Of a stretch of DNA of 64,000 nucleotides, positions 9,755 to 62,787 are shown one piece after another. The position numbers and the translations under genes are program-made. Position 1 is the first letter of the stretch, and every line of letters begins with the position of its first letter. The notes beneath the pieces were generated by a model that did not search any database, was not told where the DNA came from, and worked only from the letters and a program-made list of their open reading frames with translations. The DNA lies in assembly GCF_008000815.1 (NCBI RefSeq), contig NZ_CP042806.1, positions 2,294,001 to 2,358,000 of the forward strand, written 5' to 3'. Source of the DNA: Terriglobus albidus. GTDB taxonomy: Bacteria > Acidobacteriota > Terriglobia > Terriglobales > Acidobacteriaceae.

Positions 9755-9755
9755 A

Positions 9756-13671: not shown

Positions 13672-13741
13672 TCCAATGCCTCCAGGATGAGTATCCGGCC
13701 CTGCTCAAAATTCTTCTAACCCCGCTCACACTCACCCCATG

Positions 13742-13797: not shown

Positions 13798-13998
13798 CGG
13801 CCCCTTTGCGCCGGAGCGAAATCGCCAGAAAAGGCGCGCCATTTTGACTTTTTCAGCCTGGGGACAGGTTTCCTGTAGGATTTTATCGTGCTGCACGGAG
13901 CCGGAATGGATTGCAAAGTTGACCCCCTAAAATAGTCCGGCACTTTCATTATCGACTGAGTGTCTGGAGGCGAGGGGGTGCGCCTGCCGGGCGTCAGC

Positions 13999-14015
13999 TA
14001 ACCCTATATGGGTTA
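13999..14015. promoter_or_regulatory. Palindrome TAACCC-N5-GGGTTA before the DUF2971 gene
   Basis: The inverted repeat TAACCC/GGGTTA (13999-14004, 14010-14015) encloses TATAT, 31 bases before the ATG. It overlaps what could be a -10 element (TATATG), so it is a plausible operator. Confidence 0.35.
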
Positions 14016-14046
14016 ATAGATAAGCGGCACTGCAAAGGAACGTCCG

Positions 14047-14958: not shown

Positions 14959-15002
14959 GGGCGGCCACAATGAGCGACTCAACGTCCGGCTCGGCGGTCG
15001 TC

Positions 15003-16205: not shown

Positions 16206-16607
16206 GTCTTCCTTTATACAGCTTGGGAATGCGCGGCGACTGCGGCCCGTAGAAGAGGTTATGGGAGCAATGCGGCTGACCGGAGATTGGTTGGTTCCTA
16301 TGCTGCCTGGGCAACAATTGAGGTCGTTTGGATACACAGACCGGTATGGAAATCAAGCAGACGCTATTGGTGCTTTTGTCGTTTCTCGGCAAAGGTCGCG
16401 ACATTTTGGGCCCAAATCGCCGAGGGTGCTGGCGAGGTACTGAAATTCGATATAGCTGTTTTTCCCAGCGTTTTTGAGGGTTCAACGATGCTGTCGTTAG
16501 CCATCAACGCAGCCATCAACGCCCATGAAGCTTTTGGATACGTAACTGTTACGGCAGCGATCCAACAAGCTAAACGGAATACTAATCACAAGTGCCCATT
16601 TCGTCAC
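16206..16607. other. Gene-free 400-base stretch with a tandem 12-bp repeat
   Basis: No convincing coding frame lies between the DUF4062 and integrase genes. AGCCATCAACGC is present twice in tandem at 16499-16510 and 16511-16522, near the 3' end of the integrase gene. The 12-bp step equals that of the putative arm sites, but the sequence differs. Confidence 0.4.
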
Positions 16608-23734: not shown

Positions 23735-24049
23735 CTTCGCGGCCCTCAAAGCACTCCATTGCGACCTTCCATATTCTCTGACATTCGAGCTTCAGAGATA
23801 CCTTCATTGACCTTGTTTGTGTCTATGCATTCGTGTGCTTCTTCGTCTACTAGAAGAGGTCACGTTAGCCTAGTTATATGCGATGAATTAGACGTTCAAT
23901 AGCTGTTTCATTCAATATCCATGCTGGTATTCGCAACTATCGCGCCGAAAATATTTCTTGAAATTAGGCTCTACATTTCCATATTTGGAGTTACGCTATG
24001 CAGCAAGCAGTTGCGAGATTCTGCAGTTCACGTGTTGAGGCTTCTACGC
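23735..24049. other. Gene-free region before the relaxase
   Basis: About 315 AT-richer bases with no supported gene. An in-frame extension of the relaxase to 23921 exists but has no relaxase-like sequence, so this stretch probably holds the relaxase promoter. Confidence 0.4.
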
Positions 24050-26815
24050 ATGTTGACTCTTTCCAAAGCGTTGTCGGCCAACCAAGCCCGTACATACCAT
24101 GCGCGAGAGTTCACGTCAGAGAAGCAGAACTACTGGAGCCGTGATCGCCGGGGACACAGTGAGTGGCAAGGAGGGCTTGCGCGTGAATGGGGTCTGCATG
24201 GCTCCGTCGCCGATGAGCAATTTGCGCGGTTAAGCGAAGGCCAGCATCCAGTGAGCGCCGCGCAGCTCGTCAAGCATCAACCGGCGAGAACCTATGAGAA
24301 CGAGTACGGCAAGCAGATCACGAGCGCAGAACATCGCGCAGGTTGGGATGCAACCTTCTCTGCGCCGAAGTCCGTATCGGTGACGGCTCTTGTTGGTGGT
24401 GATGACCGTGTGCGTGATGCACATCGTGAAAGCGTTCGCGTTGCGCTGCATGAATTGGAACATTACACGCAGGCTCGCATCGGCAATGTTCGTGCGCCTG
24501 AGACAACTGGCAAGTTTGTCGCGGCAACTTTCGAGCATGACACTGCACGGCCTGTTGACGGATATGCAGCTCCCCAGCTTCATACCCATGCTGTGATCTT
24601 CAACATCACAGAGCGCGAGAATGGCCAGACCCGCGCGTTGCAGGAGCGCAGTCTCTTTCAGTCACAGCACTATGCGACAAGTGTGTATCGCTCAGAGCTT
24701 GCCATGCGGCTACAAGGACTTGGTTACGAGATCGAGCGTGGTCAACATGGGCAGCCAGAAATCAAGGGGTACTCACAGGAGTATCTGGAAGCATCGAGCC
24801 CACGGCGCGCACAGATCAAAGAACATCTTCAAGAGATAGGCCGCGACGGTGCAGGAGCCGCGCAAGTTGCGGCCCATCGGACAAGAGACAGCAAGGACAT
24901 TCTTTCGCGTGAAGAGGTGCTGGAACGGCATCGTGAGCTTGCGGCGAAGTTTGGCAATCAGCCCGATCATGTCGTAGCCCAGGTGCAGAAGCGCGAGCAC
25001 AAGGTCGAGCAGCAGCCCGAGAAAGCAGTACAGCAGTCGATGACGTACTCGCGGAATCACGTATTCGAGCGGTCGGCTGTGCAGGATGAGCGCAGCATCT
25101 TGCAGGCTGCAATGGATCGCAGCATGGGCCAAGCGACGTACAGCCAAGTTCGGCAAGAGTTCGAGCAACGTGTACAACATGGCGAGTTCCGTTTGGTAGA
25201 GCGCTCAGACGGAAGAGCAGCACCGCAGTACACGACAGCCGAGATGGTGCGGTTGGAGCGGGAGATCATCGGCCTTGTGCGGAAGGGCAATGAGAGCCGA
25301 TACGAGAGCTCCATGTTGGTGTCGCCAGTTCTGCGAATCCGCATTGAGGACGCGCATCCAGAGTTGAGCAAGTCTCAACTTGCCGCAGTAGATGACATTT
25401 TCCTGACTCGCGAAAAGATTGTTGGGCTCGATGGCGTAGCAGGGGCGGGTAAGACGACCACGCTGTCAGTCATTCGTGAAGGTGTCGAAGCACAGGGCTA
25501 CCGTGTCGAAGGATTCGCACCAACAAGCCGAGCCGCACAGAAGCTCGCAGAGGCCGGCATGATGACATCGACGCTTCAGCATCATTTAGTCAAAGGCGAA
25601 CGTCCCAATACTGGAGGGAAGCGCCTTTACGTGCTGGATGAGTCCTCTCTTGCGTCCACACGGCAGATGCACGAGTTCCTTTCACGTCTTCATCGGAATG
25701 ATCGCGTGTTGCTGGTTGGTGATGTGCGTCAGCATGAAGGTGTAGAGGCTGGTCGTCCTTTCGCGCAGCTTCAAGAAGCCGGGATGCACACGGTAAAGCT
25801 GGATGAGATTCTGCGACAGCTTGATCCAGAGTTGAAAGAGGCGGTTGAGATGCTGGCGCGCGGTCATGTCGCAGCAGCAATTGAAAGTCTCGACATCCAG
25901 GGCCGAGTGCATGAAGTGATCGGGCGTGATGCGCGAATATCCTCGATAGCACGTGAGTATGCAGCTTCGCCGGAAAACACGCTTGTTGTGTCACCGGATA
26001 ATCGCTCCCGTGCTGAGATCAATACCGCGATTCATCGGGAGCTACAGAAGCAAGACATCGTTAGCAAACGGGAACATACGATGCAAGTACTTGTCCCGCG
26101 GCAGGAGCTGACCGGCGCGGATCGCAGTTGGGCACAGCAGTATCAGCCCAATGACGTACTGCATTATTCGCGGACATCGAAGGAGACCGGCATCGGGAAA
26201 GGAGAGTATGCCCGTGTTCTTACCGTGAACGGCCAGGAGAATCTGCTTAGGGTTCTGCGCGGCAACGGTGAGCAGACGACCTACGATCCGCGCCGTCAGA
26301 TGGGCGTCTCTGTATATCGAGCTGATGAGAAGGCGTTTTCCGTTGGTGATCGCATTCAATTCACGGCACCCAATCAAGAGCTGAAGATTGCCAACCGGGA
26401 GCTCGCCAGTATTGAGAACATTGGCACGAACGGTTCGGTGCGCTTGAAACTTGATAGCGGACGCAATGTTGAAGTCCGGGTGCATGGCTTCCCGCACATC
26501 GACCACGGCTACGCTGTCACGAGCCATTCGAGCCAAGGACAGACCGCAGAGCGTGTTCTGATTCATGCCGATACTGAGCTAGGAGCTAAGGATTTACTGA
26601 ATCACCGCATGGCCTATGTATCCGTCTCGCGCGGGCAGTGGGACGCGCAGATATTTACAAATGACCGCGACAAGTTAGTGCAGGCGTTAAGCCACGATGT
26701 TTCGCACAAGAGCGTGCTCGAGCCAGGACAGGCAATCTCCGGAACGCCCCAGAGGATAGGTCCCGCCTCAGAGCATGTACTGGAGCGGAGTATGGGATAC
26801 GGATTGGGTTTGTAG
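24050..26815 (+). CDS. MobF-family (TrwC-type) conjugative relaxase-helicase
   Basis: The start at 24050, nine bases after GAGG, gives 921 residues beginning MLTLSKALSANQART, the usual TrwC beginning. The relaxase domain (1-300) includes the catalytic-Tyr-containing N-terminus (ARTYHAREF), WDATFSAPKSVSV and the three-histidine motif LHTHAVIFN. The helicase half has GVAGAGKTTT near 462-471, LVLDE-like VLDESSLAS, and late motifs VTSHSSQGQTAERV and YVSVSRG of the RecD2/TraI fold. The enzyme nicks oriT, stays bound to the 5' end and unwinds the strand. With MobC but no secretion genes, this marks element A as mobilizable rather than self-transmissible. Confidence 0.93.
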   Translation: MLTLSKALSANQARTYHAREFTSEKQNYWSRDRRGHSEWQGGLAREWGLHGSVADEQFARLSEGQHPVSAAQLVKHQPARTYENEYGKQITSAEHRAGWDATFSAPKSVSVTALVGGDDRVRDAHRESVRVALHELEHYTQARIGNVRAPETTGKFVAATFEHDTARPVDGYAAPQLHTHAVIFNITERENGQTRALQERSLFQSQHYATSVYRSELAMRLQGLGYEIERGQHGQPEIKGYSQEYLEASSPRRAQIKEHLQEIGRDGAGAAQVAAHRTRDSKDILSREEVLERHRELAAKFGNQPDHVVAQVQKREHKVEQQPEKAVQQSMTYSRNHVFERSAVQDERSILQAAMDRSMGQATYSQVRQEFEQRVQHGEFRLVERSDGRAAPQYTTAEMVRLEREIIGLVRKGNESRYESSMLVSPVLRIRIEDAHPELSKSQLAAVDDIFLTREKIVGLDGVAGAGKTTTLSVIREGVEAQGYRVEGFAPTSRAAQKLAEAGMMTSTLQHHLVKGERPNTGGKRLYVLDESSLASTRQMHEFLSRLHRNDRVLLVGDVRQHEGVEAGRPFAQLQEAGMHTVKLDEILRQLDPELKEAVEMLARGHVAAAIESLDIQGRVHEVIGRDARISSIAREYAASPENTLVVSPDNRSRAEINTAIHRELQKQDIVSKREHTMQVLVPRQELTGADRSWAQQYQPNDVLHYSRTSKETGIGKGEYARVLTVNGQENLLRVLRGNGEQTTYDPRRQMGVSVYRADEKAFSVGDRIQFTAPNQELKIANRELASIENIGTNGSVRLKLDSGRNVEVRVHGFPHIDHGYAVTSHSSQGQTAERVLIHADTELGAKDLLNHRMAYVSVSRGQWDAQIFTNDRDKLVQALSHDVSHKSVLEPGQAISGTPQRIGPASEHVLERSMGYGLGL

Positions 26816-26843
26816 GAAACGAGTTCTTATAGGGGAACGGACC

Positions 26844-27086
26844 ATGCAGCCATTCAACACTACGCAGAAGAAGCCACCAACGCGAGCCACAATTCCAGCC
26901 GAAGAGAAGTTACTTGTCAGCAGAGGAGAGGCGGCACAGCTCCTCTCGATCAGCCAGCGTGGGCTCGATTACCTGATAGCAAATCGTAGACTTCCGACTC
27001 GAAGAATCGGTGGAAGGGTTTTGATTCCTGTGGCAGATTTGCGAAAGTATGCGCGCGGGGATCATCCTGAAAGTATTGTGGCGTGA
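26844..27086 (+). CDS. Excisionase-like helix-turn-helix protein
   Basis: The 80-residue protein starts after AGGGG. Its MerR/excisionase-type HTH spans about 24-72: LLVSRGEAAQLLSISQRGLDYLIANRRLPTR in consecutive helices, then the wing RIGGRVLIPVADLRKY. Such small proteins act as recombination directionality factors or transfer regulators. It follows the relaxase by 28 bases, so it may be cotranscribed with it. Confidence 0.75.
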   Translation: MQPFNTTQKKPPTRATIPAEEKLLVSRGEAAQLLSISQRGLDYLIANRRLPTRRIGGRVLIPVADLRKYARGDHPESIVA

Positions 27087-27151
27087 GCGTTTCGCGTAGG
27101 TAACGAGTTGAAGTGTGCCGAGATGAGATGTAGGCCACTCGAAAAGCGGAG

Positions 27152-27184
27152 GCACAATCCCTCAAATTAGTTGTAGTATTGTGC
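27152..27184. promoter_or_regulatory. Inverted repeat GCACAAT-N19-ATTGTGC at the AbiE promoter
   Basis: GCACAAT (27152-27158) and ATTGTGC (27178-27184) are perfect reverse complements. They end three bases before ATG 27187. AbiEi antitoxins repress their own operon by binding inverted repeats at the promoter, so this is the probable operator. Confidence 0.55.
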
Positions 27185-27186
27185 GT

Positions 27187-27801
27187 ATGGCTCAAGTTCG
27201 TCAGGAAGCGTCGCAGCGTCTGTTCGATCTTGCCGAACAGCAACAGGGCTACTTCACCACGAAGCAGGCTAAGGCGGCAGGATTTGCAGAAAACACGCAT
27301 CCTTACCACGTTCAGGTTGGGAATTGGATTCGTGAGCATCGCGGCATTTATCGGCTCGCTCGATTTCCTGCGACGGATCGGCCAGACCTTGCCCTTTGGT
27401 CGCTTTGGTCAAAGAACCGGAAAGAAGAGGTCGAAGGGGTTTATAGCCATCAAACGGCAATCAGTCTCCACGAACTGTCTGATCTCAATCCGGCCAAACT
27501 CCATATGACCGTTCCTCCCAACTTCAGGCGTAATAGCGAGATTCCCGGCGTTCTCATACTCCATCACAGCCATCTTGCAGAAAGCGATATCCAGAGTGGC
27601 CCTGGGTATAGATACACGCGGCCTCTGCAAACGGTTGTTGACCTCATTGAAGACGGGACAGTAGAGAAGAACTTCATTCGTCAGGCGGCGAGGCAAGCGG
27701 TTGATCGGGGACTGATTACTCGTCAGCAGATTCAAAAAGCAACGATGAGTGAGCCTGCACGCGAGTTCATCGAAGAAGCAATCTCACGAGCTGCCAAATG
27801 A
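27187..27801 (+). CDS. abiEi: AbiEi-family antitoxin and autorepressor
   Basis: The ATG at 27187 is preferred because a GTG at 27181 lies inside the operator-like repeat. The 204-residue protein has the N-terminal winged-helix AbiEi_4-type domain (FDLAEQQQGYFTTKQAKAAG, HPYHVQVGNWIREHRGIYRLARFP) and a C-terminal antitoxin domain ending in REFIEEAISRAAK. It represses the operon and neutralises AbiEii by a type IV mechanism, without direct contact in studied systems. It overlaps the toxin gene by four bases. Confidence 0.87.
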   Translation: MAQVRQEASQRLFDLAEQQQGYFTTKQAKAAGFAENTHPYHVQVGNWIREHRGIYRLARFPATDRPDLALWSLWSKNRKEEVEGVYSHQTAISLHELSDLNPAKLHMTVPPNFRRNSEIPGVLILHHSHLAESDIQSGPGYRYTRPLQTVVDLIEDGTVEKNFIRQAARQAVDRGLITRQQIQKATMSEPAREFIEEAISRAAK

Positions 27802-28679
27802 CAGAACCGAAAAAGTACACAACCGCTGGAGCCTTTCGGAGAGCCCTTGAAGAACGCTTGAAGAAGACATCGCAGACGGAGCAAACCGACATCAACCGTC
27901 TCAGACGGCAGGTGTCATTCGATCGTTTGCTGGCGCGGTTGTTTCACGATGGCTCGGCGCCGTGGGTATTGAAGGGCGGCTACGCCCTGGAACTTCGCTT
28001 TAAGATGGCACGATCTACCGTGGACATCGACCTGACTATGGGGCGAGTAAACGATGGAACCGATGGCAGCGATATAAATCAGGTTGTCCGGGAGATGCTT
28101 CAAACAGCGGCCAGTCTCCCGCTGGGAGATTGGTTCGAGTTCACGATTGGTTCTCCCATGACGGACATAACGGCTGCTCCTTATGGAGGAGCGCGTTATC
28201 CGGTCGAAGTTCGTATGGATGGAAGAATCTTCGCAAAGTTCCACCTCGACGCAGGCATCGGAGATATTGTCATACATCCGGTGGAGATCATCGAAACGCG
28301 AGATTGGCTCGCATTCGCTGGAGTCGAACGGTCGCAGGTGCTGTTGATTGCCCGCGAACAACAGTTCGCCGAAAAGATTCACGCATACACGCTGCCGCGC
28401 AACACTCCCAACAGCCGTGTGAAAGACCTGGTGGATATGGCGCTCCTGATCGGCGATAACACATTGGACCGGCAGAAGATTCTCAACGCGCTGCGGCTAA
28501 CATTTGAGCGCCGCGAAACGCATCCCTTGCCAGAAACGCTGGATGCCCCGCCACCTGAATGGACGACGCCGTTTCAAACCCTCGCGAAGGAGTGCGGATT
28601 GCCACCAGACCTTACCGCCGTATTTGAGCGCGTGCGCAATTTTTTTGAAGAAGTCTTTGCCAGCCAGAGAGCATCCTGA
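27798..28679 (+). CDS. abiEii: AbiEii/AbiGii-family nucleotidyltransferase toxin
   Basis: The 293-residue protein has the NTase core WVLKGGYALELRF followed by RSTVDIDLTM (the D-x-D metal pair) and the downstream REQQFAEKIHAY and SRVKDLVDMALLI motifs of the family. AbiEii enzymes block growth by adding nucleotides to targets such as tRNA acceptor ends and abort phage infection. Its ATG overlaps the antitoxin stop (ATGA), giving a coupled pair. It is the last gene before the right end of element A and may also stabilise it. Confidence 0.9.
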   Translation: MTEPKKYTTAGAFRRALEERLKKTSQTEQTDINRLRRQVSFDRLLARLFHDGSAPWVLKGGYALELRFKMARSTVDIDLTMGRVNDGTDGSDINQVVREMLQTAASLPLGDWFEFTIGSPMTDITAAPYGGARYPVEVRMDGRIFAKFHLDAGIGDIVIHPVEIIETRDWLAFAGVERSQVLLIAREQQFAEKIHAYTLPRNTPNSRVKDLVDMALLIGDNTLDRQKILNALRLTFERRETHPLPETLDAPPPEWTTPFQTLAKECGLPPDLTAVFERVRNFFEEVFASQRAS

Positions 28680-52976: not shown

Positions 52977-54152
52977 TTGTCCCAGTTGCAGGCCAAATCC
53001 CGCCTCGGCCGATACGTCGCCAAAGTCTTTGAGGGCGAGACGGTTCGCGCCTTCGTCCCGCCGCCGTTGCCCCCGGTTCCGCCCGTGCGGTTCGAGAGGT
53101 TGCAACTGCTTCTGGAACAGGCCAATCAGGCGGTCGGTCGGCTCGACGGGCTTGCCTCTCTCCTTCCAGACCTTTCCCTTTTGCTGTATACATACGTTCG
53201 CAAAGAAGCCGTACTGTCGTCACAAATCGAGGGAACTCAATCCTCTCTATCGGATCTGCTGCTCTTTGAAAATGAAGAGATTCCCGGTGCGCCTATCGAA
53301 GACGCGCAGGACGTCTCGAATTATGTCGCCGCCATGAACCATGGGCTGGAACGCCTGCGCGCAGGATTCCCACTATCGTTGCGACTGATCCGGGAGATCC
53401 ATGAAATTCTTCTGGCCCAAGGTCGAGGAAGCGGCAAACAGCCAGGTGAATTCAGACGAAGTCAGAATTGGATCGGCGGGAGTCGCCCAGGTAATGCGGC
53501 GTTTGTGCCGCCACCTCCAGAATTCGTCCCGGAATGCCTGGGACAGTTCGAACTCTTCTTGCATGAAACGGAGTCGGGACTCCCGCTGCTCATCAAAGCC
53601 GGATTGATCCATGTTCAGTTTGAGACGATCCATCCGTTCCTGGATGGCAACGGCAGGCTGGGACGCCTCCTGATCACGTTTCTTCTCTGTGCCCGGGGCG
53701 CGCTCCGGGAACCGATTCTCTATCTGAGCCTCTATTTCAAAAGTAATCGCAGTGCGTACTATGAGCTCCTCGACCGTGTGCGCACCAGGGGCGATTGGGA
53801 AGCGTGGCTTGACTTCTTTCTGATTGGAGTCCGAGACACCGCCGACCAGGCTGCAGGCGCAGCCCGACGCATTGTTGCCCTTTTCGAACAGGATCAGAAG
53901 AAGATCGAAGGCTTGGGTCGCCCCTCAGCCTCAGTCTTGCGCGTATTTCAACACATGCAGCGGAATCCGATCGTTGCGATTCCCACCACAGCCAAAAAGA
54001 TCGGAATCTCAGCGCCGACAGTCACCAAATCACTGATGCACATGATCGATCTAGGAATCTTGCACGAGGTAACTGGCCGGGAGCGGCACCGGCTGTTCGT
54101 CTATGAGCAGTATTTGGCAATTCTGAACGAAGGAACGGAACCGATTCGATGA
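52977..54152 (+). CDS. Fic-domain AMP-transferase, class II
   Basis: The TTG start follows AAAGG and gives 391 residues. The Fic motif HPFLDGNGRLGRLL at about 219-232 is complete, with the catalytic His. The inhibitory motif SSQIEG (S-x3-E-G) near 81-86 in the N-terminal Fic_N region makes it class II, self-inhibited. A C-terminal winged helix (about 310-370, IGISAPTVTKSLMHMIDLGI) suggests DNA binding. Fic enzymes transfer AMP from ATP to target proteins. It lies 127 bases upstream of the methylase operon, so it may be an accessory or independent. Confidence 0.88.
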   Translation: MSQLQAKSRLGRYVAKVFEGETVRAFVPPPLPPVPPVRFERLQLLLEQANQAVGRLDGLASLLPDLSLLLYTYVRKEAVLSSQIEGTQSSLSDLLLFENEEIPGAPIEDAQDVSNYVAAMNHGLERLRAGFPLSLRLIREIHEILLAQGRGSGKQPGEFRRSQNWIGGSRPGNAAFVPPPPEFVPECLGQFELFLHETESGLPLLIKAGLIHVQFETIHPFLDGNGRLGRLLITFLLCARGALREPILYLSLYFKSNRSAYYELLDRVRTRGDWEAWLDFFLIGVRDTADQAAGAARRIVALFEQDQKKIEGLGRPSASVLRVFQHMQRNPIVAIPTTAKKIGISAPTVTKSLMHMIDLGILHEVTGRERHRLFVYEQYLAILNEGTEPIR

Positions 54153-54279: not shown

Positions 54280-57030
54280 GTGACCACTAAGGAAATCATC
54301 GATCGCATCTTCAAAGAACCTGGTATCAAATACGAGCTCACCGAGTTTGAGAATCTCGGAAAGCCGATCCACGAAATCCTGACGATCTATCCAAAGGCTG
54401 CCACAACCGGAAAAGACGCCGGCAAGAGCAAGTATTACCTGAAGAGCTTCATACCGTTTTCAACCGGCAATGAAGAAGTGCCGGTTTATATCGAGGGTGG
54501 CAAATCGGCACCTGAAGAGATTGTGCGGCAGCTCTGGATATATAAGCTCACCCATCAGTACCTCTACAAGATTGAAGAAATCGATTTGGAGAAAGGTGTA
54601 CAGTTTGGCACGGAGGTGGGGACAAAAGCGGCAGACATTATCGTCTACACCGACCCAACAAAGCTTACGCCAAAAATCATCGTCGAGTGCAAAAAGCCAA
54701 AGCGCAAGGACGGGATAGAGCAGCTCAAAAGCTACATGAACGCCAAAGGTGCGCCGGTGGCTGTTTGGTCCAATGGCGCAGACAGCATCATTCTGTACCG
54801 TCCGTACCCAGCGCAGTTTGACGATACGCTCTTCGATATTCCCAAGCGCGGTCAAGAGCCTAAGGACGTACTCGAGGCCAGCAAGACGCTACTCCAATTA
54901 AAGCGTGACTTCAATTTCAAAAAAATCATTCAGGACCTTGAAGAATTGGTGTTGGCCGACAGCGGCAAGGATGAATTCAATGAAATCTTCAAGCTCATCT
55001 TTGCCAAGATTTGGGACGAGAAGGAAGCTCTGGAGAAACGACCCAACAAAGTAGTCGAGTTTCGCAAGGCCATCGACCCGGATATTACCTACGATCGGAT
55101 TAACAATCTGTTCCATAAGGCATGCGAAGAGTGGCCGGGCATTTTCAAGGAAGGGGATGACATTGACCTGGCCAAGCGCCATCTGCAGATTTGCGTTGGA
55201 CCCATCGAAGGCGTGCGTTTGATGGGTTCGAACCTACGCATCATGGACGATGCCTTCGAGTACCTGCTCCCGACAGAGGCCAAGAAAAAGAAGGGCCAAT
55301 TCTTTACGCCTCGCCATGTGGTGGAGATGTGCGTGCGCATGCTCAATCCAAAGCGAAACGAGTATGTTATGGACCCTGCCTGCGGCTCCGGCGGCTTCCT
55401 CCTGCATGCCATGGATTGGTGCTACCCCGCAAACGATAACGAGCAACGAGAGACGAGAAAGCACAAGTACGCCTCGAAATACCTATGGGGCATCGACTTT
55501 GAGCAGCGCGCCGCAAAGACCTCACGCTCACTCATGCTGATTGCGGGGGATGGCCACACTAACATCTTTGGCCCGGATGTCAGCAGCCTTGACCCGAGAA
55601 CATGGTACGAGAGTGCCTCGGGGCAGCAACTCATGCAAGGTCTGAGACAGGCAAAGCTAACCGCGAAGAAGATCCCCGAGAACGAGACCCTCAAGGACGA
55701 CGACAAGGCGTGGGAATACTTCGTGGATCTGAAATTTGATGTCGTTCTTGCGAACCCGCCGTTCGCCGGTGAGATGAAGGATCGCAAGATGCTTGTGCAC
55801 TACGATCTAGCCAAACCGGCTTTAAAACGAGCGGGCGACGACAAAGCTCCCAAGGAAGAGCGCGATGTGCTTTTTATCGAGCGCATCCTGAAAATGCTCA
55901 AGCCAGGTGGGCGGGCCGCGATTGTGTTGCCTCAAAGCAAATTCAATAACTCCTCCCTGGCCTTCATTCGAGAGTGGATTCTGAAAAGGGCCAGGCTTCT
56001 GGCAGTGATCGGTCTCCACCCCAACACCTTTAAGCCGCATACGGGGACCAAGACGTCGGTCCTGTTCATTCAGAGGCATACTCAGGCCCAGCTCGATCAA
56101 ATTTCCGCAGTTCATGACCAGGTGGCGATCACATCTCCCGACTACGAATCCGAAATCAGAAAATTGCTTGAGGATCATGTGGCTTCGGCCGATGTCCCCG
56201 ACGAAGCTATCCCGGAGCCGATTGCGGACCTCATTGTCGAGCGCCTGAGTGAGCCCGAGCCGGATAGTGAAGAAGCGCTCGACGATCAAAGTCAAGGCGA
56301 AAACGGCGAAAAGGAAGACGAGACCTCTGCCAGAGGGGAAGATCTCGGAGCAATCGCAGAGGAGAAGGTGAGCAGACTCAAGGGCGCGCTACTCAGCGCC
56401 AAGCAGAAGCTCATCGACCTCGACAGCGATGCTGAAGCGCTAGCCCGAAAGAACAGGCAGGAAGTCGATGCAATCGCGAAGACGTGGAAGGGCACCAAGA
56501 CCGAGCTGAACGTGCATTTGAAGCCCATGAAAGCGAAGCTCAAAGCGACAGTTGCCAAGCAGAAAGAAAGCCAGAAGGAAACGCAGAAAGCTATCAAGGC
56601 TGAAATTAAGGTACTGGAGAGGCAGATTCCGCAGGCTGAGATCGACTTGAAGCTCCTCAGCAATCGCGGCAAGTTGACGTTGATCCTGGAAGACGCAGAC
56701 CTACTTGGCGCACTCAAAGAGCGCTGGATCGCTGCTGAGGTAGCCAAGCAACTGGACTACCCTATCTTCATGGCAGTAAGCGAGCGCGGAGGAAAGGACA
56801 CATCGGGAGACTACCAATATGTTCTAGACGAGCTGGGTAGCTTGGTGGAATTTCCAAACGACCATCCGCAAGAAGGACAGCTCATCGTGAATCAAGACCT
56901 TGTGAACTACGACTTGGCAGCAGCGGACCTCGCTAATGCGGCTACCATCCCAGATGACAAACGTTGTGTCGCAGAGGAGTTCGTCCTTTTCGCTCAAGTG
57001 CAGAACCTAAGCTTCTGGAGTAACGAGTAA
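54280..57030 (+). CDS. N6-adenine DNA methylase (HsdM-like) with N-terminal HsdR_N-type nuclease domain and C-terminal coiled coil
   Basis: A GTG start gives 916 residues. Residues about 60-185 resemble the type I restriction R_N nuclease fold: GTKAADIIVYTD, KIIVECKKPKRKDGIEQLKS and GAPVAVWSNG, with the Asp and the E-x-K of PD-(D/E)xK. The methylase part (about 240-640) has the HsdM-like FTPRHVVEMCVRM, SAM motif DPACGSGGF near 364-372 and the catalytic NPPF at about 491-494. Residues about 690-810 are a charged coiled coil, followed by a small C-terminal domain. It overlaps the HsdS gene by one base. With HsdS it should methylate adenine at a specific site. Whether the nuclease domain cuts is unknown. 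Confidence 0.85.
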   Translation: MTTKEIIDRIFKEPGIKYELTEFENLGKPIHEILTIYPKAATTGKDAGKSKYYLKSFIPFSTGNEEVPVYIEGGKSAPEEIVRQLWIYKLTHQYLYKIEEIDLEKGVQFGTEVGTKAADIIVYTDPTKLTPKIIVECKKPKRKDGIEQLKSYMNAKGAPVAVWSNGADSIILYRPYPAQFDDTLFDIPKRGQEPKDVLEASKTLLQLKRDFNFKKIIQDLEELVLADSGKDEFNEIFKLIFAKIWDEKEALEKRPNKVVEFRKAIDPDITYDRINNLFHKACEEWPGIFKEGDDIDLAKRHLQICVGPIEGVRLMGSNLRIMDDAFEYLLPTEAKKKKGQFFTPRHVVEMCVRMLNPKRNEYVMDPACGSGGFLLHAMDWCYPANDNEQRETRKHKYASKYLWGIDFEQRAAKTSRSLMLIAGDGHTNIFGPDVSSLDPRTWYESASGQQLMQGLRQAKLTAKKIPENETLKDDDKAWEYFVDLKFDVVLANPPFAGEMKDRKMLVHYDLAKPALKRAGDDKAPKEERDVLFIERILKMLKPGGRAAIVLPQSKFNNSSLAFIREWILKRARLLAVIGLHPNTFKPHTGTKTSVLFIQRHTQAQLDQISAVHDQVAITSPDYESEIRKLLEDHVASADVPDEAIPEPIADLIVERLSEPEPDSEEALDDQSQGENGEKEDETSARGEDLGAIAEEKVSRLKGALLSAKQKLIDLDSDAEALARKNRQEVDAIAKTWKGTKTELNVHLKPMKAKLKATVAKQKESQKETQKAIKAEIKVLERQIPQAEIDLKLLSNRGKLTLILEDADLLGALKERWIAAEVAKQLDYPIFMAVSERGGKDTSGDYQYVLDELGSLVEFPNDHPQEGQLIVNQDLVNYDLAAADLANAATIPDDKRCVAEEFVLFAQVQNLSFWSNE

Positions 57031-58418
57031 TGGCCACTATTTCGTTTGTGTCTCATTCACGACTAGGCCGTTATAAAACGCTCGCTGCAGAGTATTATCA
57101 GCCGCACTTCATGTGTGCTGAACAAATGGTTGAGAAACTAGGAAAGCACTGCTTTCCTCTAAAGGCTTGTACAAAGAGTGCTTACCCTATCACGTACGGT
57201 GTTCTGAAACCCAGGCAGGTTGACACCAGCACTTTTCGACTAGCACGTATTCAGAACGCTGAGGCTGTATTCGTATTTGGGGACGATCTCCCGCCGATAA
57301 GCGCCGTTCAGTTCGAGGAGTATCGACGATCGGAAGTGCGTCTCGGTGACATCATCATCGCTATTGGAGGAAATATTGGTCCTCTCGGAATCATCTCTGA
57401 CTCCGCAAGTTGCCGACTTAATATCAACCGTCATTTGGCGCGAATCTCGCCTGAGGAAAGGGTGGTGGACGGGTACTATCTAGTGGCCTACCTAGCATCG
57501 CCCGTAAGTCGGGCCCTATTGGATCGAGAGGTTCGAGGTGCAGTTCAAGCAGGCATAAACATTGCCGATCTAAAACTTCATCCAGTCTTCTTACCTGATC
57601 CGGAGACCCAGCGCGTTATTGGGGATCTTGTCCGCGCTGGAGAGCGGGCGCTTAAGAATTCACGCCTAGCACACTCCAGTGCAAAACAACTGCTTGAGGA
57701 AGAGATCGGTGTGAACAGACTCATGTTCAGAAGGTCTAGAGGTTACACCGTTCTCTCTTCCGATCTCGCGAGCTCGAGGCGATCCGATGCCGAATATTAC
57801 AACCCTGCGACGCGTGAGGTCATAAGGAGAATCACTGCGAAGCAGCATACTAGAGTGCGTGATTCCTTTGACGTTACGAGTGGGTTCCCGTGGAATAGCG
57901 CCAAGTTTCTGCCAGATAACTCCGGAGAACCCGTAGTCAGAATTAGGAATATTAAGCCTGATCACATTATTCCAGATGAGCTGACGAGCATTGACCCTTC
58001 CTACGCGAATTCGATCGGGGCCGCAAAAGCCCAGAAGGGGGACGTCGTAGTCGGAATGGATGGAATCAAATACTTCTACGCGAGCCTGCTGGAAGGGACT
58101 GCCTACGTCAACCAACGGGTTTGCCATCTTTCGCGGCGTGCCTCGGGTACAATCTCGCCCGAATACGCAGCGTTTATGATCAACAGTTCCATCGGTCAGG
58201 CTCAACTTATGCGTGACATGACGGTGGCCACCACAGTTGGGCACATCACCAATAGAGACGTGTCGAGACTCGTGATTCCTACAGTGTCGCGAGCTTTCCA
58301 CGACAAGGTTACAGGGTTGATACGCGAGTCCATCGATGGCAAGGAAGAAGCCAAGCGTCTGCTTACTCAGGCCAATGTACGAATCGAGCAAATCATCAAG
58401 GAGGCCGAACAACCATGA
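57030..58418 (+). CDS. HsdS-like target-recognition subunit
   Basis: The 462-residue protein has two target-recognition domains, each followed by a helix. Typical phrases include RLGDIIIAIGGNIGPLGIIS and GDVVVGMDGIKYFYASLLEG, the AQKGDVVVGM-type strand of HsdS, and the closing helix KVTGLIRESIDGKEEAKRLL. It would give DNA sequence specificity to the upstream methylase. Its last four bases overlap the start of the small gene (ATGA). Confidence 0.82.
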   Translation: MATISFVSHSRLGRYKTLAAEYYQPHFMCAEQMVEKLGKHCFPLKACTKSAYPITYGVLKPRQVDTSTFRLARIQNAEAVFVFGDDLPPISAVQFEEYRRSEVRLGDIIIAIGGNIGPLGIISDSASCRLNINRHLARISPEERVVDGYYLVAYLASPVSRALLDREVRGAVQAGINIADLKLHPVFLPDPETQRVIGDLVRAGERALKNSRLAHSSAKQLLEEEIGVNRLMFRRSRGYTVLSSDLASSRRSDAEYYNPATREVIRRITAKQHTRVRDSFDVTSGFPWNSAKFLPDNSGEPVVRIRNIKPDHIIPDELTSIDPSYANSIGAAKAQKGDVVVGMDGIKYFYASLLEGTAYVNQRVCHLSRRASGTISPEYAAFMINSSIGQAQLMRDMTVATTVGHITNRDVSRLVIPTVSRAFHDKVTGLIRESIDGKEEAKRLLTQANVRIEQIIKEAEQP

Positions 58419-58591
58419 ATCTGTCGACTGAAGACACTGCATTGCTGGAAGAGCTATGTCACCAGCACGGCATCAGCTCAGATAAGGTACTGAAACTACT
58501 GGAAGCAGTGCGTGAGTACGAGTTTAAGGATCGGCGCACCGGAGTCTACGACGCTCTACGCGAGATCCTGAAGAGTAAAACGTCACAATAA
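58415..58591 (+). CDS. 58-residue helical protein of the modification operon
   Basis: ATG 58415 overlaps the hsdS stop, with AGGAGG just upstream. The protein is MNLSTEDTALLEELCHQHGI, then SSDKVLKLLEAVREYEF, then RTGVYDALREILKSKTSQ. It is mostly helical and ends with a conserved-looking basic R-x-G-x-Y-x-x-L-x-x-I-L segment. Its place between specificity subunit and ATPases suggests an adaptor. Similar short proteins are known next to DNA-modification systems; I infer the role only from position. Confidence 0.75.
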   Translation: MNLSTEDTALLEELCHQHGISSDKVLKLLEAVREYEFKDRRTGVYDALREILKSKTSQ

Positions 58592-58605
58592 TCGGGACAG
58601 GCAGA

Positions 58606-59268
58606 ATGACCGACACAGGCGAAATCGAACGCTTCGCAAGAGATCCACGAATTCTAGTGCAGGTCTGCCGTGGTGTGATCGAACGGTTGGATACAAGTTC
58701 GGATAGCGCAGCTATCGCGGAGCAGGAGGCGCAGCTGCGCGCGATTGCAAGGGCCGTGGAGCAGCTCGAGAAATCGCGCGTTGCAGTACCTGACCCTCTG
58801 CGGGCCGAAAAGACTCGACTGGCTGTGTCTTTGGCTGTTCAAGCCGATGCTAAACAGGCGCTTACTCAATTAGCCGACGACTTCCAGGACATCTTGAATG
58901 ATTTAAGAGATCGGCTCGGTTTTCGCGCAACGGTGCCAGAACCAAAACAGTCCAAACCCGCCGGTAAGCGTGCAAGAACCCCGAAAGCAACAAGACTGCC
59001 GAAGACTCCACATATTATCCTGCGTGAGCACATTTTGCTGGCGTTGAAGAAGTTAGGTGGTAAGGCGCGGATGTCTGACGTGATGGACGAAATGAGCAAG
59101 CAGCTCGAAGGAAAACTGTTGCCCGGCGACTTAGCATTGCGTCAGGACGGTAAGAGTATTGCCTGGAAAAACAACGCCCAATGGGAACGGCTCAGAATGC
59201 GCCAGGATGGGATTCTGCGAGATGACTCGCCGTCAGGCATCTGGGAGCTTATCAAGGAGCGCAAATGA
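58606..59268 (+). CDS. Winged-helix (Mrr_N-like) protein of the modification operon
   Basis: The 220-residue protein has a helical, probably coiled-coil N-terminal part (about 1-105). A basic linker (PAGKRARTPKATRLPKTP) precedes a C-terminal winged-helix domain of about 85 residues with HIILREHILLALKKLGGKAR, MSDVMDEMSKQLEG, and NAQWERLRMRQDGILRDDSP. This C-terminal domain resembles the N-terminal DNA-binding domain of Mrr endonucleases; no nuclease domain follows. Four bases overlap the next gene. Likely a DNA-binding or regulatory component. Confidence 0.7.
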   Translation: MTDTGEIERFARDPRILVQVCRGVIERLDTSSDSAAIAEQEAQLRAIARAVEQLEKSRVAVPDPLRAEKTRLAVSLAVQADAKQALTQLADDFQDILNDLRDRLGFRATVPEPKQSKPAGKRARTPKATRLPKTPHIILREHILLALKKLGGKARMSDVMDEMSKQLEGKLLPGDLALRQDGKSIAWKNNAQWERLRMRQDGILRDDSPSGIWELIKERK

Positions 59269-61265
59269 GATTTCGTAAGCTGACAATTGAGAACTACAAA
59301 TCCTTTCAGTTTCCAAGCGAGATCCTTTTTCCGGTAGGAGAAGATGGCAGGACCATCTTCTTGATCGGGGGAATGAATGGGGCCGGCAAGACCTCGATCA
59401 TGGAGGCCGTGACTTTCTGCCTCTATGGCGGTAAGGCTGACGAAATCTATCGCAACATTAACCGTCGTGAGAAGGCCAAAGGGAATGCCAATGTTGCATT
59501 CGAGATGGTAATCGAGATGGATGATCTCTCGGAGCTGGTCGTGAAGCGCTCTTGGACGGCAGGCGCGGCCAGCGATCCTAAGCCGCGTGATCTGACGGAG
59601 CGGCTTGTCGTTGTGCGTGACGGCAAACGGGTATCAGTGCAGAACCAGGAGATTTGGCAGGATTTCATCCGGGCGGCGATCCCGCCTGGGATCACGCAGT
59701 TTTTCTTCTTCGATGGCGAAAAGATCCAAGAGATTGCGGCAGATGATCACTCCGAGGTTCGGCTAAAGTCCTCGCTAGAGGCGGCTCTCGGGATACAGTT
59801 CATCAACCGGCTGGCCGCTGACATTGTCTACATAAAGCAACAAGAACGGCAGGGCTTTGTGGAGATCTCGGATGAGGACTTGGAATTCAAGCAGAGCGAA
59901 CTGAAGAGAGAGAGGAGCAAGCTGGCCCGAAAGCATCAGGAACGAGATGGCTTGCGCACGGAACTGGAGTCCTTCAAAACACAGCTGGAAGAAGCCAAGA
60001 AGCGATTCGAAGCCACATTTCACGCGGCACCAGAGTCGCGTGAGGCAATGCGCGAACAGGAAAAGAAACGGGTGTTGACTGCCAACCGTCTCGCGCAAAT
60101 TGAAAGTGAGATCAGCAGCCTCTGTGAGAAGGCCCTCCCGTTCAGCCTCGCAGGAAAACTATTCAGCGGAATCAGGCGGCAAATTGAAGCCGAGCGCGAA
60201 TCGGCTACGGGAGAAGCCATCAAGGAGAACGCTTCCAATCTGGCGAAGCGAATCGTCAGGGTAGTCGAAGAACCGGAGCCAATCTATACAGAAAAGTTGT
60301 CCGACGAGCGGATGGCCGAGTTGGAGCGACGCATCTTTCGCCTACTAAAAGAGGGCGACCCACGAAGCAATGTAGCCAAAGTGCTGGACCTCTCGGATCG
60401 CGACGCGGCGCGGGTGCTAAACCGGATGGAGTCTCTTGAAAGTAGTGACGTATTCCTATTGAAGCCCTTGCTCGAGGAAGCCCGTGGCCTGGAAGCCCAA
60501 ATCCGCCACCTGGAGGGTCTCCCTCAGGGAGGATCGCTACCCTCGACAGAACGCGAACTCTTTGATCAGTTACAGGGAGAAATGGAGAGCTGTTCGACTC
60601 AGATCGGGCGCAAAACTGAACAGTTGCGATTGCTCGAAGAGAGCATCCTTGGGATGGACAAGCGCATCGCTGACATCGAGATCGAAATTGAAAAGCTCTA
60701 TGAGAAGCATCACATCTCAAGAGATAAAGCTGACTTCATCGAGGAATGCGACGCCATCGCGAGTGTGTTGAACCAATTTATCGTCCGACTGCGTAAGAAC
60801 AAGGTGCATCTGCTCCAAGAGAAAACGTTCGAAATGTACCGACTTCTCTCCAGCCGTAGCGGCCTAATCAAAGACATCACGATCGACGACAAAACATATG
60901 AGGTTCGAATCACTGATCGCAATGGTCACGAGATTAGGAAGTCCGCACTATCCGCCGGAGAAAAGGAAGTGTTTGCGGTTTCCCTTTTATGGGGCCTTGC
61001 ACAGACTAGCGAATTGAAGCTTCCGATCATCATCGATACGCCTTTATCGCGTTTGGACAGCACGCACCGCGACAATATTGTGAACAATTATTTCCCGAAT
61101 GCAGGTGAGCAGGTCATCATTCTCTCCACAGACACGGAAATTGATAGCAACTATTATCGTTCCTTGAAACCGCGGCTGAGTGGTGCCGGAAGTTTGGAGT
61201 TTGACCAAAGACAAGAATTGACTACTTTCCGACAAGGCTACTTTTGGGAGAGAAACAATGGCTGA
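59265..61265 (+). CDS. DndD-like SMC/RecF-type ATPase
   Basis: The 666-residue length and layout match DndD. The Walker A is GGMNGAGKTS near 35-44, with the family phrase TQFFFFDGEKIQEIA near 145-160. A long coiled coil (about 200-550) is broken by a conserved centre. The C-terminal half-site has SAGEKEVFAVSLLWGL (ABC signature), Walker B LPIIIDTPLSRLD and the switch His region LSTDTEID. In Dnd systems DndD hydrolyses ATP and may alter DNA for sulfur insertion; no cysteine desulfurase or DndC is present here. It overlaps the previous gene by four and the next by eight bases. Confidence 0.85.
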   Translation: MRFRKLTIENYKSFQFPSEILFPVGEDGRTIFLIGGMNGAGKTSIMEAVTFCLYGGKADEIYRNINRREKAKGNANVAFEMVIEMDDLSELVVKRSWTAGAASDPKPRDLTERLVVVRDGKRVSVQNQEIWQDFIRAAIPPGITQFFFFDGEKIQEIAADDHSEVRLKSSLEAALGIQFINRLAADIVYIKQQERQGFVEISDEDLEFKQSELKRERSKLARKHQERDGLRTELESFKTQLEEAKKRFEATFHAAPESREAMREQEKKRVLTANRLAQIESEISSLCEKALPFSLAGKLFSGIRRQIEAERESATGEAIKENASNLAKRIVRVVEEPEPIYTEKLSDERMAELERRIFRLLKEGDPRSNVAKVLDLSDRDAARVLNRMESLESSDVFLLKPLLEEARGLEAQIRHLEGLPQGGSLPSTERELFDQLQGEMESCSTQIGRKTEQLRLLEESILGMDKRIADIEIEIEKLYEKHHISRDKADFIEECDAIASVLNQFIVRLRKNKVHLLQEKTFEMYRLLSSRSGLIKDITIDDKTYEVRITDRNGHEIRKSALSAGEKEVFAVSLLWGLAQTSELKLPIIIDTPLSRLDSTHRDNIVNNYFPNAGEQVIILSTDTEIDSNYYRSLKPRLSGAGSLEFDQRQELTTFRQGYFWERNNG

Positions 61266-62787
61266 TCGACTCTATACGTCAGACGAAGCCGACGAGGTGC
61301 TCAGCGCACTGCGCTTCGAAACTAAGCTTGAAAAAGCAGTACTTGCTCGGATTGCCTTCGCGCTCTCATTGGTCAAACAAGGCGTGGGTGTGCCAGTAAG
61401 CCTTAGCTTTGGTGGAGCTGAGATGAAGAGGCCGACGTTCGTCGGAGAGGATGAGGTTTTTCTCCGTGCACTGATTGCCCACATATATGGACAGCGAGAG
61501 TTCAGCGAGGACGAGTTCTTTTCAAATCGTTCAATCGTAAAAAACCACATAGACAGTGGTACGGCATTACTGGCACAGATGTTTCAAGAGGCTGGGCGAA
61601 GCGGCGAGGGGCTGATTCGTCGCCTGGTGGACGAAGTGGAGTTCTCAGGTTGTCGCGAACAACTCGGCGGTAGACTGGACATCTTCATTGGTCGTACGTT
61701 GCTTCAACGGGCTGAGTTGGTTATGGAATTGAACAATACGGTCAAGCATGCAAATTCTCATCTCGCCATCATGGGAAAACCTGGTGTTGGAAAGACCCAG
61801 TTCTTGCTAAAGATTTTGGCCGACATCAGGATCCAGTCAAATTATCAAACGAATTTTATCTACTTCGACTATAAGGGTGATGTCATAGAGAACCAGCGCT
61901 TTCTGGAACTGGCACGTGTTCAGCCATTTCGTCTTTTGCAAGGTGGCCAATCCCTCCCGATCAATCCATTTATTCTGCCGGCATACGACGAGCAGACGAT
62001 CAATGTGTCTGCCCGCGAAAAGGCGGAGAGCTTCGCGTCGATCAACAGTAAGCTCGGAGTGGTCCAGAAGGGTGCTCTGACTGAGGCAATTCGGGCTGCT
62101 TACGCCAAGCGGGCCGGATCGGCTTCGTCATTTCCCGATTTTCCAGATGTTCTTGAAGTTGCGATGGCGTCTTACGAGCAAGATGGAAAGAGGGACGACA
62201 GCCTGATCGAGGTTTTGCGAGACCTCTCCGATTTTGATTTATTCTGGCGCCACGGCAATGAGACGGCACCGCTCGACCGTTTGGCCAATCGCACGATGCT
62301 GATTGATGTACACGCTATGCCAGTCTTGAAGGAGTTGGTTGCTTATCTTGTAATCGAGCGACTTTACAAGGAAATGGCCACATTGCCAGACAGCCCTGTC
62401 ACTGAGGATCGGCGAACAATTCGGACCATCCTCGTAATTGATGAGGCTCATAATTACCTGGGTCAGAAGAACATATTCCTGCAAAGAATCATTCGTGAAG
62501 GGCGCTCAAAGGGCGTCGTTGTCTTCTTCGCCAGCCAGTCGCCAAACGACTATCAACAGAAGTTTTTCAATTTCCAAGAATTGCTTGAGTTTGCATACAT
62601 ATTTCAGTGTGATGGCGTTTCGGCAGGTTCTGTTCAAGACATTCTCGGATGCAGCGCTAAGGCGGCAAAGGATCTGCAGACTGAGATCGCGCGATTGGAG
62701 CCTTGGCAAGTCATTACACGCAGTCAAGCCAAGACCGAGCAATTCGACAAGTTCGTTGCTGAGGCTTTCTACAAGAGCTACGCTTGA
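61258..62787 (+). CDS. DndE-like domain fused to HerA-type ATPase
   Basis: The 509-residue protein has two parts. Residues 1-115 resemble DndE: a helix with FETKLEKAVLARIAFALSLV, then VSLSFGGAEMKRPTF and the late KNHIDSGTALLAQMF (compare the DndE ending with H-x-x-x-G). Residues about 145-509 are a HerA/DUF87-type ATPase with Walker A MGKPGVGKTQ near 170-180, Walker B TILVIDEAHNY near 391-400 and VFFASQSPNDY as sensor. HerA-like hexamers pump or unwind DNA with a nuclease partner; in Dnd restriction this role is DptH. Placing DndE and HerA in one chain links the modification and restriction halves. The DndE match is by pattern only. Confidence 0.75.
   Translation: MADRLYTSDEADEVLSALRFETKLEKAVLARIAFALSLVKQGVGVPVSLSFGGAEMKRPTFVGEDEVFLRALIAHIYGQREFSEDEFFSNRSIVKNHIDSGTALLAQMFQEAGRSGEGLIRRLVDEVEFSGCREQLGGRLDIFIGRTLLQRAELVMELNNTVKHANSHLAIMGKPGVGKTQFLLKILADIRIQSNYQTNFIYFDYKGDVIENQRFLELARVQPFRLLQGGQSLPINPFILPAYDEQTINVSAREKAESFASINSKLGVVQKGALTEAIRAAYAKRAGSASSFPDFPDVLEVAMASYEQDGKRDDSLIEVLRDLSDFDLFWRHGNETAPLDRLANRTMLIDVHAMPVLKELVAYLVIERLYKEMATLPDSPVTEDRRTIRTILVIDEAHNYLGQKNIFLQRIIREGRSKGVVVFFASQSPNDYQQKFFNFQELLEFAYIFQCDGVSAGSVQDILGCSAKAAKDLQTEIARLEPWQVITRSQAKTEQFDKFVAEAFYKSYA

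What the first reader, a model, noticed from the sequence alone, without database searches (positions are those of the whole stretch)
54280..62787. Candidate undescribed defence system: type I-style methylase plus DndD-like and DndE-HerA ATPases
Six genes run in one direction; most overlap or abut, the largest gap being 14 bases after the 58-residue gene. The order is HsdR_N-domain methylase, HsdS, 58-residue protein, winged-helix protein, DndD-like ATPase, DndE/HerA fusion. Known Dnd loci use DndABCDE for phosphorothioation and DptFGH for restriction; here dndA, B, C and dptF, G are missing and a methylase with specificity subunit takes their place. Sequence shows the domains; that these act together to mark self DNA by methylation and attack unmarked DNA is inference. 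The locus sits in a tRNA-linked island next to a Fic gene.
Basis: partly seen in the sequence, partly recalled or inferred. Interest (0 to 1): 0.92.

Follow-up and report, generated by a model that had tools for sequence, protein, structure and literature searches.

The report
Restriction enzyme yoked to Dnd ATPases
This is a widely shared bacterial gene set in which a self-marking DNA-cutting enzyme seems to replace the sulfur-inserting enzyme that usually works with the Dnd DNA-handling motors, so a known defence machine looks re-tooled to a different chemical mark.

Summary
The six-gene operon is real, at the stated coordinates. It recurs across phyla: among relatives with a full DndE-HerA gene (EH) and enough upstream sequence, DndD lies directly upstream in 40 of 42, the small protein (sp) occurs in 38 of 39 and the large methylase (M) in 24 of 30. 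Three corrections. (1) M is probably not only a methylase: it resembles the RM subunit of type IIB enzyme BsaXI, and its nuclease and methylase residues are invariant in 23 of 23 aligned sequences, so M+S may be a complete cut-and-mark enzyme. (2) The 58-residue protein is a free-standing DndC C-terminal tail, the segment reported in print to bind DndD; DndC's catalytic part is absent. (3) Gene 4 is a putative reader with a swapped C-terminal domain. Loci reading dndC-sp-dndD-dndE/FtsK exist, so this is that architecture with M+S in DndC's place. DndD beside DndE-HerA was already published; I found no description of the M+S version in the papers searchable here, but a key 2020 paper was not held. 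The locus is not in the tRNA-linked island. New variant of a known kind; joint action and anti-phage function are inferred.

The parts
54280..57030 (+). Gene 1 (M): RM fusion, 916 aa; N-terminal PD-(D/E)xK-type domain, N6-adenine methylase, C-terminal region that looks coiled-coil by eye
   Evidence: Pfam N6_Mtase 7.4e-38, HSDR_N_2 1.1e-20; best PDB sequence match RM.BsaXI 1.8e-33 over residues 231-614
54283..54855 (+). Nuclease-like domain of M; candidate catalytic residues E104, D119, E136, K138 (plus Q148, Y152)
   Evidence: invariant in 23 of 23 aligned M sequences, window included; predicted fold best matches the BsaXI endonuclease domain
55753..55764 (+). Methylase motif NPPF (residues 492-495 of M)
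   Evidence: invariant in 23 of 23, window included
57030..58418 (+). Gene 2 (S): type I-style specificity subunit
   Evidence: Methylase_S 4.1e-6; PADLOC Specificity_I 3.4e-29; median pairwise identity 26% against 73% for M in 17 loci, window included
58415..58591 (+). Gene 3 (sp): free-standing DndC C-terminal tail (Sp-DndD); predicted DndD-binding adaptor
   Evidence: PF20306 6.4e-14; matches DndC models near their C-terminal ends; residues aligned with DndC L458 and R471 conserved, E462 not
58606..59268 (+). Gene 4 (wH): conserved helical N-terminal module plus winged-helix C-terminus; putative DNA or methylation reader
   Evidence: alignment A1 and Pfam scan of 39 members; AlphaFold mean pLDDT 88.1, pTM 0.46
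59265..61265 (+). Gene 5 (D): DndD, Rad50/SMC-like ABC ATPase
   Evidence: TIGR03185 389 bits, above cut-off; Walker A K42, signature G565 and Walker B D591 in 40 of 40 sequences, window included
61258..62787 (+). Gene 6 (EH): DndE (residues 4-110) fused to HerA/FtsK ATPase (about 140-505)
   Evidence: PF08870 2e-10; PADLOC DndH C-terminus 4.1e-39; PDB DptH HerA domain 7es4 4.3e-20; Walker A K179 and Walker B D395/E396 in 47 of 47 sequences, window included
52977..54152 (+). Adjacent Fic gene; possible accessory, not core
   Evidence: SoFic 1.6e-119; 4 of 66 relative loci have a Fic match (L014, L025, L046, L065), in L065 inside the operon between S and sp

Best explanation
The locus is one inherited defence unit. 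M and S form a BsaXI-like (RM)2S enzyme that methylates adenine at sites chosen by S on the host chromosome and can cut unmethylated sites with its own N-terminal nuclease. The Dnd-derived half (DndD plus DndE-HerA) is an ATP-driven DNA clamp and translocase that in phosphorothioate systems serves DndC; here the DndC tail survives as the separate protein sp, which docks on DndD, and M+S stands in for DndC's catalytic part. Gene 4 probably adds a reader of DNA sequence or methylation state. Unmarked invading DNA would be captured and moved by DndD/DndE-HerA and cut by M. Shown here: anatomy, conserved order, correlated divergence, sp as a DndC tail, conserved catalytic residues. Inferred: physical coupling of M+S to DndD through sp, methylation as the self mark, cleavage, and anti-phage function.
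For: Order M-S-(accessory)-sp-(wH)-D-EH recurs: D 40 of 42, sp 38 of 39, M 24 of 30 eligible loci. M, D and EH distances correlate (rho 0.73-0.79, 0 of 999 permutations as high; S against D only 0.34) in 17 loci. M nuclease-type and methylase residues invariant 23 of 23; predicted N-terminal domain best matches BsaXI, whose E73/D90/E105/K107 are needed for cleavage (PMC11997821, passages). S has a median identity of 26% while M has 73%, as expected if specificities are exchanged. sp matches DndC tails; DndC residues 433-482 are reported as a DndD-binding segment (PMC12193691, section 2.3). Counterpart dndC-sp-dndD-DndE/FtsK in Aureimonas plasmid pAU20f; by profile match DndC, an sp-like ORF, DndD and an EH-like protein in Methylorubrum. 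In L028 an N6/N4-type methylase and a TdeIII endonuclease stand upstream where M and S would be.
Confidence: 0.58

Rival explanations
1. Two independent defence systems that travel together: M+S is a self-sufficient type IIB restriction-modification enzyme, and sp-wH-DndD-DndE/HerA is a separate device that attacks or blocks DNA after sensing methylation or an infection signal.
For: M relatives without sp, D or EH occur in 4 other genomes of 297 searched, 3 of them with the full nuclease motif; an S-like match lies beside 2 of the 4. Extra sequence, often accessory genes (RhuM, DarT/macro, zeta-like), separates S from sp in 17 of 27 loci.
Against: M, D and EH distances correlate strongly; Pfam shows no nuclease catalytic domain in sp, wH, D or EH; sp is the piece by which a modifying enzyme is reported to bind DndD in phosphorothioate systems.
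Confidence: 0.22
2. DndD and DndE-HerA serve mainly modification: as DndD-DndE assist DndC, they scan DNA and load M+S for methylation, and restriction is a minor or absent function.
For: The phosphorothioate counterparts place the same sp-D-EH order behind the modifying enzyme DndC.
Against: The nuclease-type residues of M are invariant in 23 of 23, which a pure methylation system would not need.
Confidence: 0.13
3. A maintenance or stabilisation module of a mobile element (partition or addiction) rather than anti-phage defence.
For: HerA/FtsK and SMC-like ATPases also serve segregation (established knowledge); toxin-antitoxin-like accessory genes are inserted in some copies.
Against: No close EH was found in 72,556 plasmid records at E<=1e-20 (5 records, best 29.5% identity) or confirmed in viral contigs (close relatives only). 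The 66 loci come from a genome collection, so they do not speak to this.
Confidence: 0.05

Closest known systems
DndE-HerA fusion beside a DndD-like ATPase ('clade-3' HerA/FtsK; Rakesh, Aravind and Krishnan 2024, PMC10853773, citing their 2020 paper)
   Same: Same DndD plus DndE-HerA pair; section 22 (read) states they are adjacent in a subset of Dnd systems
   Different: Described there as phosphorothioate-modification systems; the sections read do not mention an N6-adenine RM fusion with HsdS, and a search of the main text for 'hsds' and 'hsdm' gave 0
Phosphorothioate-type loci dndC-sp-dndD-dndE/translocase (Aureimonas plasmid pAU20f; Methylorubrum extorquens AM1 megaplasmid)
   Same: sp, DndD and a DndE-translocase fusion in the same order
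   Different: A DndC core stands where M+S stands here; in Aureimonas the translocase is FtsK-type and the DndE match (21.4 bits) is below the Pfam cut-off
Type IIB restriction enzyme BsaXI (PMC11997821, passages)
   Same: RM fusion with N-terminal PD-(D/E)xK domain and adenine methylase, plus a separate S subunit; 916 aa in both
   Different: The passages seen describe only RM and S subunits; DndD, DndE-HerA, sp and a reader gene are additional here
MADS (methylation-associated defence system; models only, no MADS paper read)
   Same: M resembles MAD2 (259 bits), S resembles MAD5 (95 bits), EH weakly resembles mad8 (62 bits)
   Different: M and S fall far below the equivalog cut-offs (720 and 400); EH scores higher to DndH (132 bits); sp matched no mads model, wH matched nothing, and D showed none among its best 25 of 99 rows
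PbeABCD / CxC-ABC systems with cytosine methylases (PMC10853773, section 16, read)
   Same: Principle of an ABC ATPase-DndE pair with a base methylase in place of phosphorothioation
   Different: Here the ATPase is closest to DndD, the methylase is N6-adenine type with S, and no HKD-nuclease/SF2-helicase is among the six proteins

Membership tests
Dnd phosphorothioation system | DndC PP-loop sulfurtransferase core | tested here: not met
   0 TIGR03183 matches in own genome (control rang in 5 of 14); three DndC queries against the 66 loci hit only sp (2 loci) at E<=1e-3, while four control loci rang
Dnd phosphorothioation system | DndD ATPase | tested here: met
   TIGR03185 389 bits against cut-off 245.85
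Dnd phosphorothioation system | DndE | tested here: met
   PF08870 41.4 bits against 25; the stricter TIGR03184 cut-off is not reached (36.8 against 71.85); fused to HerA
Dnd phosphorothioation system | DndA cysteine desulfurase (or a stand-in) | not tested
   no dedicated search; none among the six genes
DndFGH / DptFGH restriction module | DptF and DptG | tested here: inconclusive
   dnd_assoc_3 and dnd_assoc_1 models (assigned to these genes from memory) gave no match in own genome, but no control genome rang
DndFGH / DptFGH restriction module | gene 6 being a full-length DndH of about 1,700 residues | tested here: not met
   EH (509 aa) matches only the C-terminal HerA part, 1340-1713 of 1715; the rest of the genome was not searched for DndH
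Type IIB (BsaXI-like) restriction-modification | N-terminal PD-(D/E)xK nuclease in the methylase polypeptide | tested here: met
Type IIB (BsaXI-like) restriction-modification | N6-adenine methylase and separate S subunit | tested here: met
Type IIB (BsaXI-like) restriction-modification | cleavage on both sides of the recognition site | not testable with these tools
   needs enzyme assay
Type I restriction-modification | HsdR subunit with SF2 motor | tested here: not met
   none of the six proteins reaches the Pfam cut-off for an SF2 helicase domain; the rest of the genome was not searched for HsdR
MADS | MAD2 and MAD5 equivalogs | tested here: not met
   259 against 720 bits and 95 against 400 bits
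PbeABCD / CxC system | PbeA (HKD nuclease with SF2 helicase) | tested here: not met
   absent from the six proteins; the ATPase scores 459 bits to its best DndD model and 425 to its best PbeC model, a small difference

The most novel reading that the evidence does not exclude
A distinct kind of restriction-modification in which the sequence recognition, marking and cutting of a type IIB enzyme are driven by a Dnd-derived pair of DNA motors, coupled through a detached DndC tail that acts as a general plug by which different modification chemistries (phosphorothioation, type IIB adenine methylation, and, on the evidence of one locus with a full EH and one decayed locus, type II methylation) are fitted to the same DndD-DndE/HerA engine.
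Probability: 0.35. Interest if true: 0.82.

Novelty: new variant of a known kind. Interest (0 to 1): 0.62.

Why it matters
Whether DndD-DndE machines serve only phosphorothioation has been raised as an open question in print (PMC10853773, section 24, read as part). This locus offers a natural swap: the same sp-DndD-DndE/translocase order behind DndC in some genomes and behind an adenine RM enzyme in others. It would make the question 'what do DndD and DndE-HerA do for a modifying enzyme?' testable with ordinary enzymology and methylome sequencing, because adenine methylation and cleavage are easier to assay than sulfur insertion.

Tried and rejected
Considered and rejected: type I RM with a missing HsdR (no SF2 motor in the six proteins; M fits a type IIB RM fusion better); membership of MADS (scores far below cut-offs); sp as a new family (it is PF20306, and NCBI already names it 'DNA modification system-associated small protein'); the strong-looking TAL-effector matches of sp in PDB, which sum many 20-residue repeat matches and mean nothing; the tRNA-island link.

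Led nowhere: an empty insertion site in the genus (of 19 genomes two besides the own carry the upstream gene at 95-96%, but their contigs end within 0.5 kb of it); viral contigs (11 pattern matches, none a relative); close copies on plasmids (5 records, all under 30% identity); a sequence profile of the M nuclease domain against PDB (nothing credible); the structural search with gene 4 (no match at E<=0.001, generic winged helices, DpnI among them at E 0.22); Krishnan 2020 (not held). Own-genome searches for DptF/DptG were uninformative because no control rang. One odd lead not followed: sp also weakly matches a type II methylase model near its C-terminus (PDLC03333, E 0.0036), but the sp profile found no such tail on the methylase of L028.
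Full report
One search gives six + strand ORFs at exactly the stated coordinates with the stated tight junctions. Pfam, PADLOC and NCBIfam name them: M, HSDR_N_2 plus N6_Mtase; S, Methylase_S; a 58-residue Sp-DndD protein (sp); gene 4 (wH) with a weak Mrr_N match; DndD (D) above the NCBIfam cut-off; and a DndE-HerA fusion (EH). The host genome is one 6.4 Mb contig with one DndE and one DndD match, both in this locus, and no DndC or DndB match. DndA was not searched, and the searches for DptF/DptG-type models were uninformative.

The set is conserved. A scan of genome contigs with EH gave 66 loci, whose record titles name Acidobacteriaceae, Proteobacteria, Desulfobacterales, Bacillota, Bacteroidota, Anaerolineaceae, Nitrospirae, Phycisphaerales, Kiritimatiellae, Cloacimonadota and others. 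Nineteen of the 66 have an EH that is broken, cut by a contig end or only partly matched, and were left out of the counts. Of the remaining 47, D is at least 95% covered and directly upstream in 40 of 42 with at least 2 kb upstream (misses L012, L037); sp is present on the same strand in 38 of 39 with at least 3.2 kb (miss L012); M is at least 90% covered in 24 of 30 with at least 8 kb (misses L001, L012, L013, L014, L028, L040). These are coverages, not proof of intact frames: D or M is split into two ORFs in some loci, such as L002, L028, L031 and L062. The sample was found with patterns from the window's own EH, so it is biased to close relatives. In 17 loci (window included) with all four proteins as single ORFs, M, D and EH distances correlate at rho 0.73-0.79 with 0 of 999 permutations as high; S correlates less (0.52 with M, 0 of 999; 0.43 with EH, 3 of 999; 0.34 with D, 23 of 999) and has a median identity of 26% against 73-76% for the others. 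That fits one unit whose specificity subunit is exchanged or diverges fast. The key ATPase residues are invariant: K42, G565 and D591 in 40 D sequences, K179 and D395/E396 in 47 EH sequences; some neighbouring motif positions vary.

sp is a free-standing DndC tail. It matches DndC models near their C-terminal ends (PADLOC 404-457 of 481, 402-454 of 468, 493-543 of 586; TIGR03183 395-446 of 447). In 297 genomes of the phylum, 6 have PF20306 matches at E<=0.001. Apart from the window, four genomes have matches over the cut-off, in open frames of 465-495 residues, and all four proteins carry the GGKDS PP-loop motif of DndC. Two further matches are below the cut-off: one in G026 (L074, not examined) and one in G093, among genes that look unrelated by eye. 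In 13 host genomes of relatives, TIGR03183 finds only a short tail-type match in 8, a short match plus a distant full-score DndC in 1 (L054's genome), a distant full DndC alone in 1 (L008's genome) and nothing in 3; by coordinates the short matches I checked (L019, L027, L054) are the sp genes, and the two DndC genes lie roughly 0.3-0.4 Mb from the system. Three DndC queries against all 66 loci hit only sp, in 2 loci, at E<=1e-3. PMC12193691 section 2.3 (read) reports, from AlphaFold3 models and pull-downs, that the DndD globular domain binds DndC residues 433-482 and that the combined change L458D/E462A/R471A disrupts the interaction; a second interface is the very C-terminal DndC helix. E. 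coli H240 DndC has L, E and R at those numbers. Across 49 small proteins (48 from this set plus the Aureimonas one), L458 is kept in 49 and R471 in 48, while E462 is V in 43 and E in 4. So two of the three residues are kept and one is not.

A phosphorothioate-type counterpart exists. Aureimonas plasmid pAU20f reads dndC (379 aa, without the tail), sp, dndD, a 507-aa DndE-FtsK fusion (DndE match below the Pfam cut-off), TusA. Methylorubrum extorquens AM1 has, by profile matches in an unannotated stretch, DndC, a separate sp-like ORF, DndD and an EH-like protein. The splitting of sp from DndC and the fusion of DndE to a translocase therefore occur with DndC too. The order of events was not established; the simplest account is that M+S took the place of the DndC core. 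L028 shows another core: an N6/N4-type methylase and a TdeIII endonuclease (1.1e-71) ahead of sp-wH-D-EH; L047 has an N6_N4 methylase upstream of sp and of decayed D and EH.

Gene 4 looks like a reader. In 39 members, window included, a helical N-terminal module (consensus QLxEIxKAIExLxKxGVPVP) is shared and the C-terminal half is swapped: at E<=0.01, 16 match Mrr_N, 8 RAMA and 7 DUF4357, where one member may match more than one; a further type occurs in copies downstream of EH. AlphaFold gives a helical N-terminus and a winged-helix-like C-terminus (pLDDT 88.1, pTM 0.46). The winged helices of DpnI and HhiV4I sense adenine methylation (PMC11037411, abstract), and RAMA has been proposed to, though a preference for methylated DNA could not be confirmed for MPND (passages). 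Reading of methylation by gene 4 is therefore a guess. In 29 of 45 loci with sp and D there is room for such a gene between them.

Between S and sp lies a slot for accessory genes: 10 of 27 loci have room only for S; the other 17 have extra sequence, with RhuM in 10, DarT plus a macro-domain protein in 2, zeta-like in 2, an unnamed family in 3 and a gene 4 copy in 1, some loci holding two. Only one representative of each family was scanned with Pfam. A Fic gene lies in that slot in L065 and upstream of M in the window; 4 of 66 loci have a Fic match.

Novelty. PMC10853773 (abstract; sections 13, 14, 16, 17 and 22; part 1 of 2 of section 23) already describes DndE fused to HerA beside a DndD-like ATPase, and cytosine methylases with CxC-type systems; its main text holds neither 'hsds' nor 'hsdm'. 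Of ten literature searches in the open-licence library, five were aimed at this gene set; their listings and the passages opened showed no description of the M+S version. The other five concerned MADS, DndC, RAMA and BsaXI. The 2020 paper cited for the DndE-HerA systems is not held, supplements could not be read, and preprints are not covered, so absence from print is not shown. I rate it a new variant of a known kind.

Mechanism. Most likely, M+S marks host adenines and cuts unmarked sites, while DndD and DndE-HerA, docked through sp, clamp and move DNA to bring sites to it (confidence 0.58). Correlated divergence, conserved catalytic residues and the published sp-type interface support this; sp-M contact, methylation, cleavage and phage protection are untested.

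Noticed in passing
window 1844-17621: tRNA-Leu followed by a defence-rich stretch: nSTAND3 protein (2193-6224), DncV-like nucleotidyltransferase (6897-8063) beside a SAVED protein (8064-9284, HNH-like N-terminus by eye), and a tyrosine integrase at 16608-17621; looks like a CBASS locus.
   Followed up: partly
window 18105-22066: Bacterial Pnkp (PNKP_ligase 5e-180) and Hen1 RNA-repair pair next to the integrase.
   Followed up: no
window 23921-28679: TrwC relaxase (23921-26815) and AbiEii-type nucleotidyltransferase (27798-28679), possible traces of a conjugative element.
   Followed up: no
L085 6691-11743: dndC, an ORF that looks HNH-like by eye, a PIN protein and a DndE-HerA fusion, with no DndD found in the 18 kb fetched: a DndE-HerA without its usual ABC ATPase partner nearby.
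   Followed up: partly
L028 4556-11530: sp-wH-DndD-DndE/HerA placed behind an N6/N4-type methylase and a TdeIII endonuclease instead of M+S; D is split into two ORFs.
   Followed up: partly
L018 5962-8009 and L049 3824-5750: Three tandem gene-4 paralogues with differing C-terminal halves in front of DndD, as if several readers were used together.
   Followed up: partly
L017 5469-7163, L018 4067-5760, L014 5395-7031, L046 7674-9368: DarT and macro-domain (DarG-like) pair just upstream of sp; Pfam run on L017 only, the others by clustering.
   Followed up: no
L093 3020-4960 (just downstream of the window): 646-residue ORF about 1.2 kb downstream of EH with no Pfam match at E<=1e-5; by eye it resembles a NERD/helicase protein (recalled, untested).
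   Followed up: no
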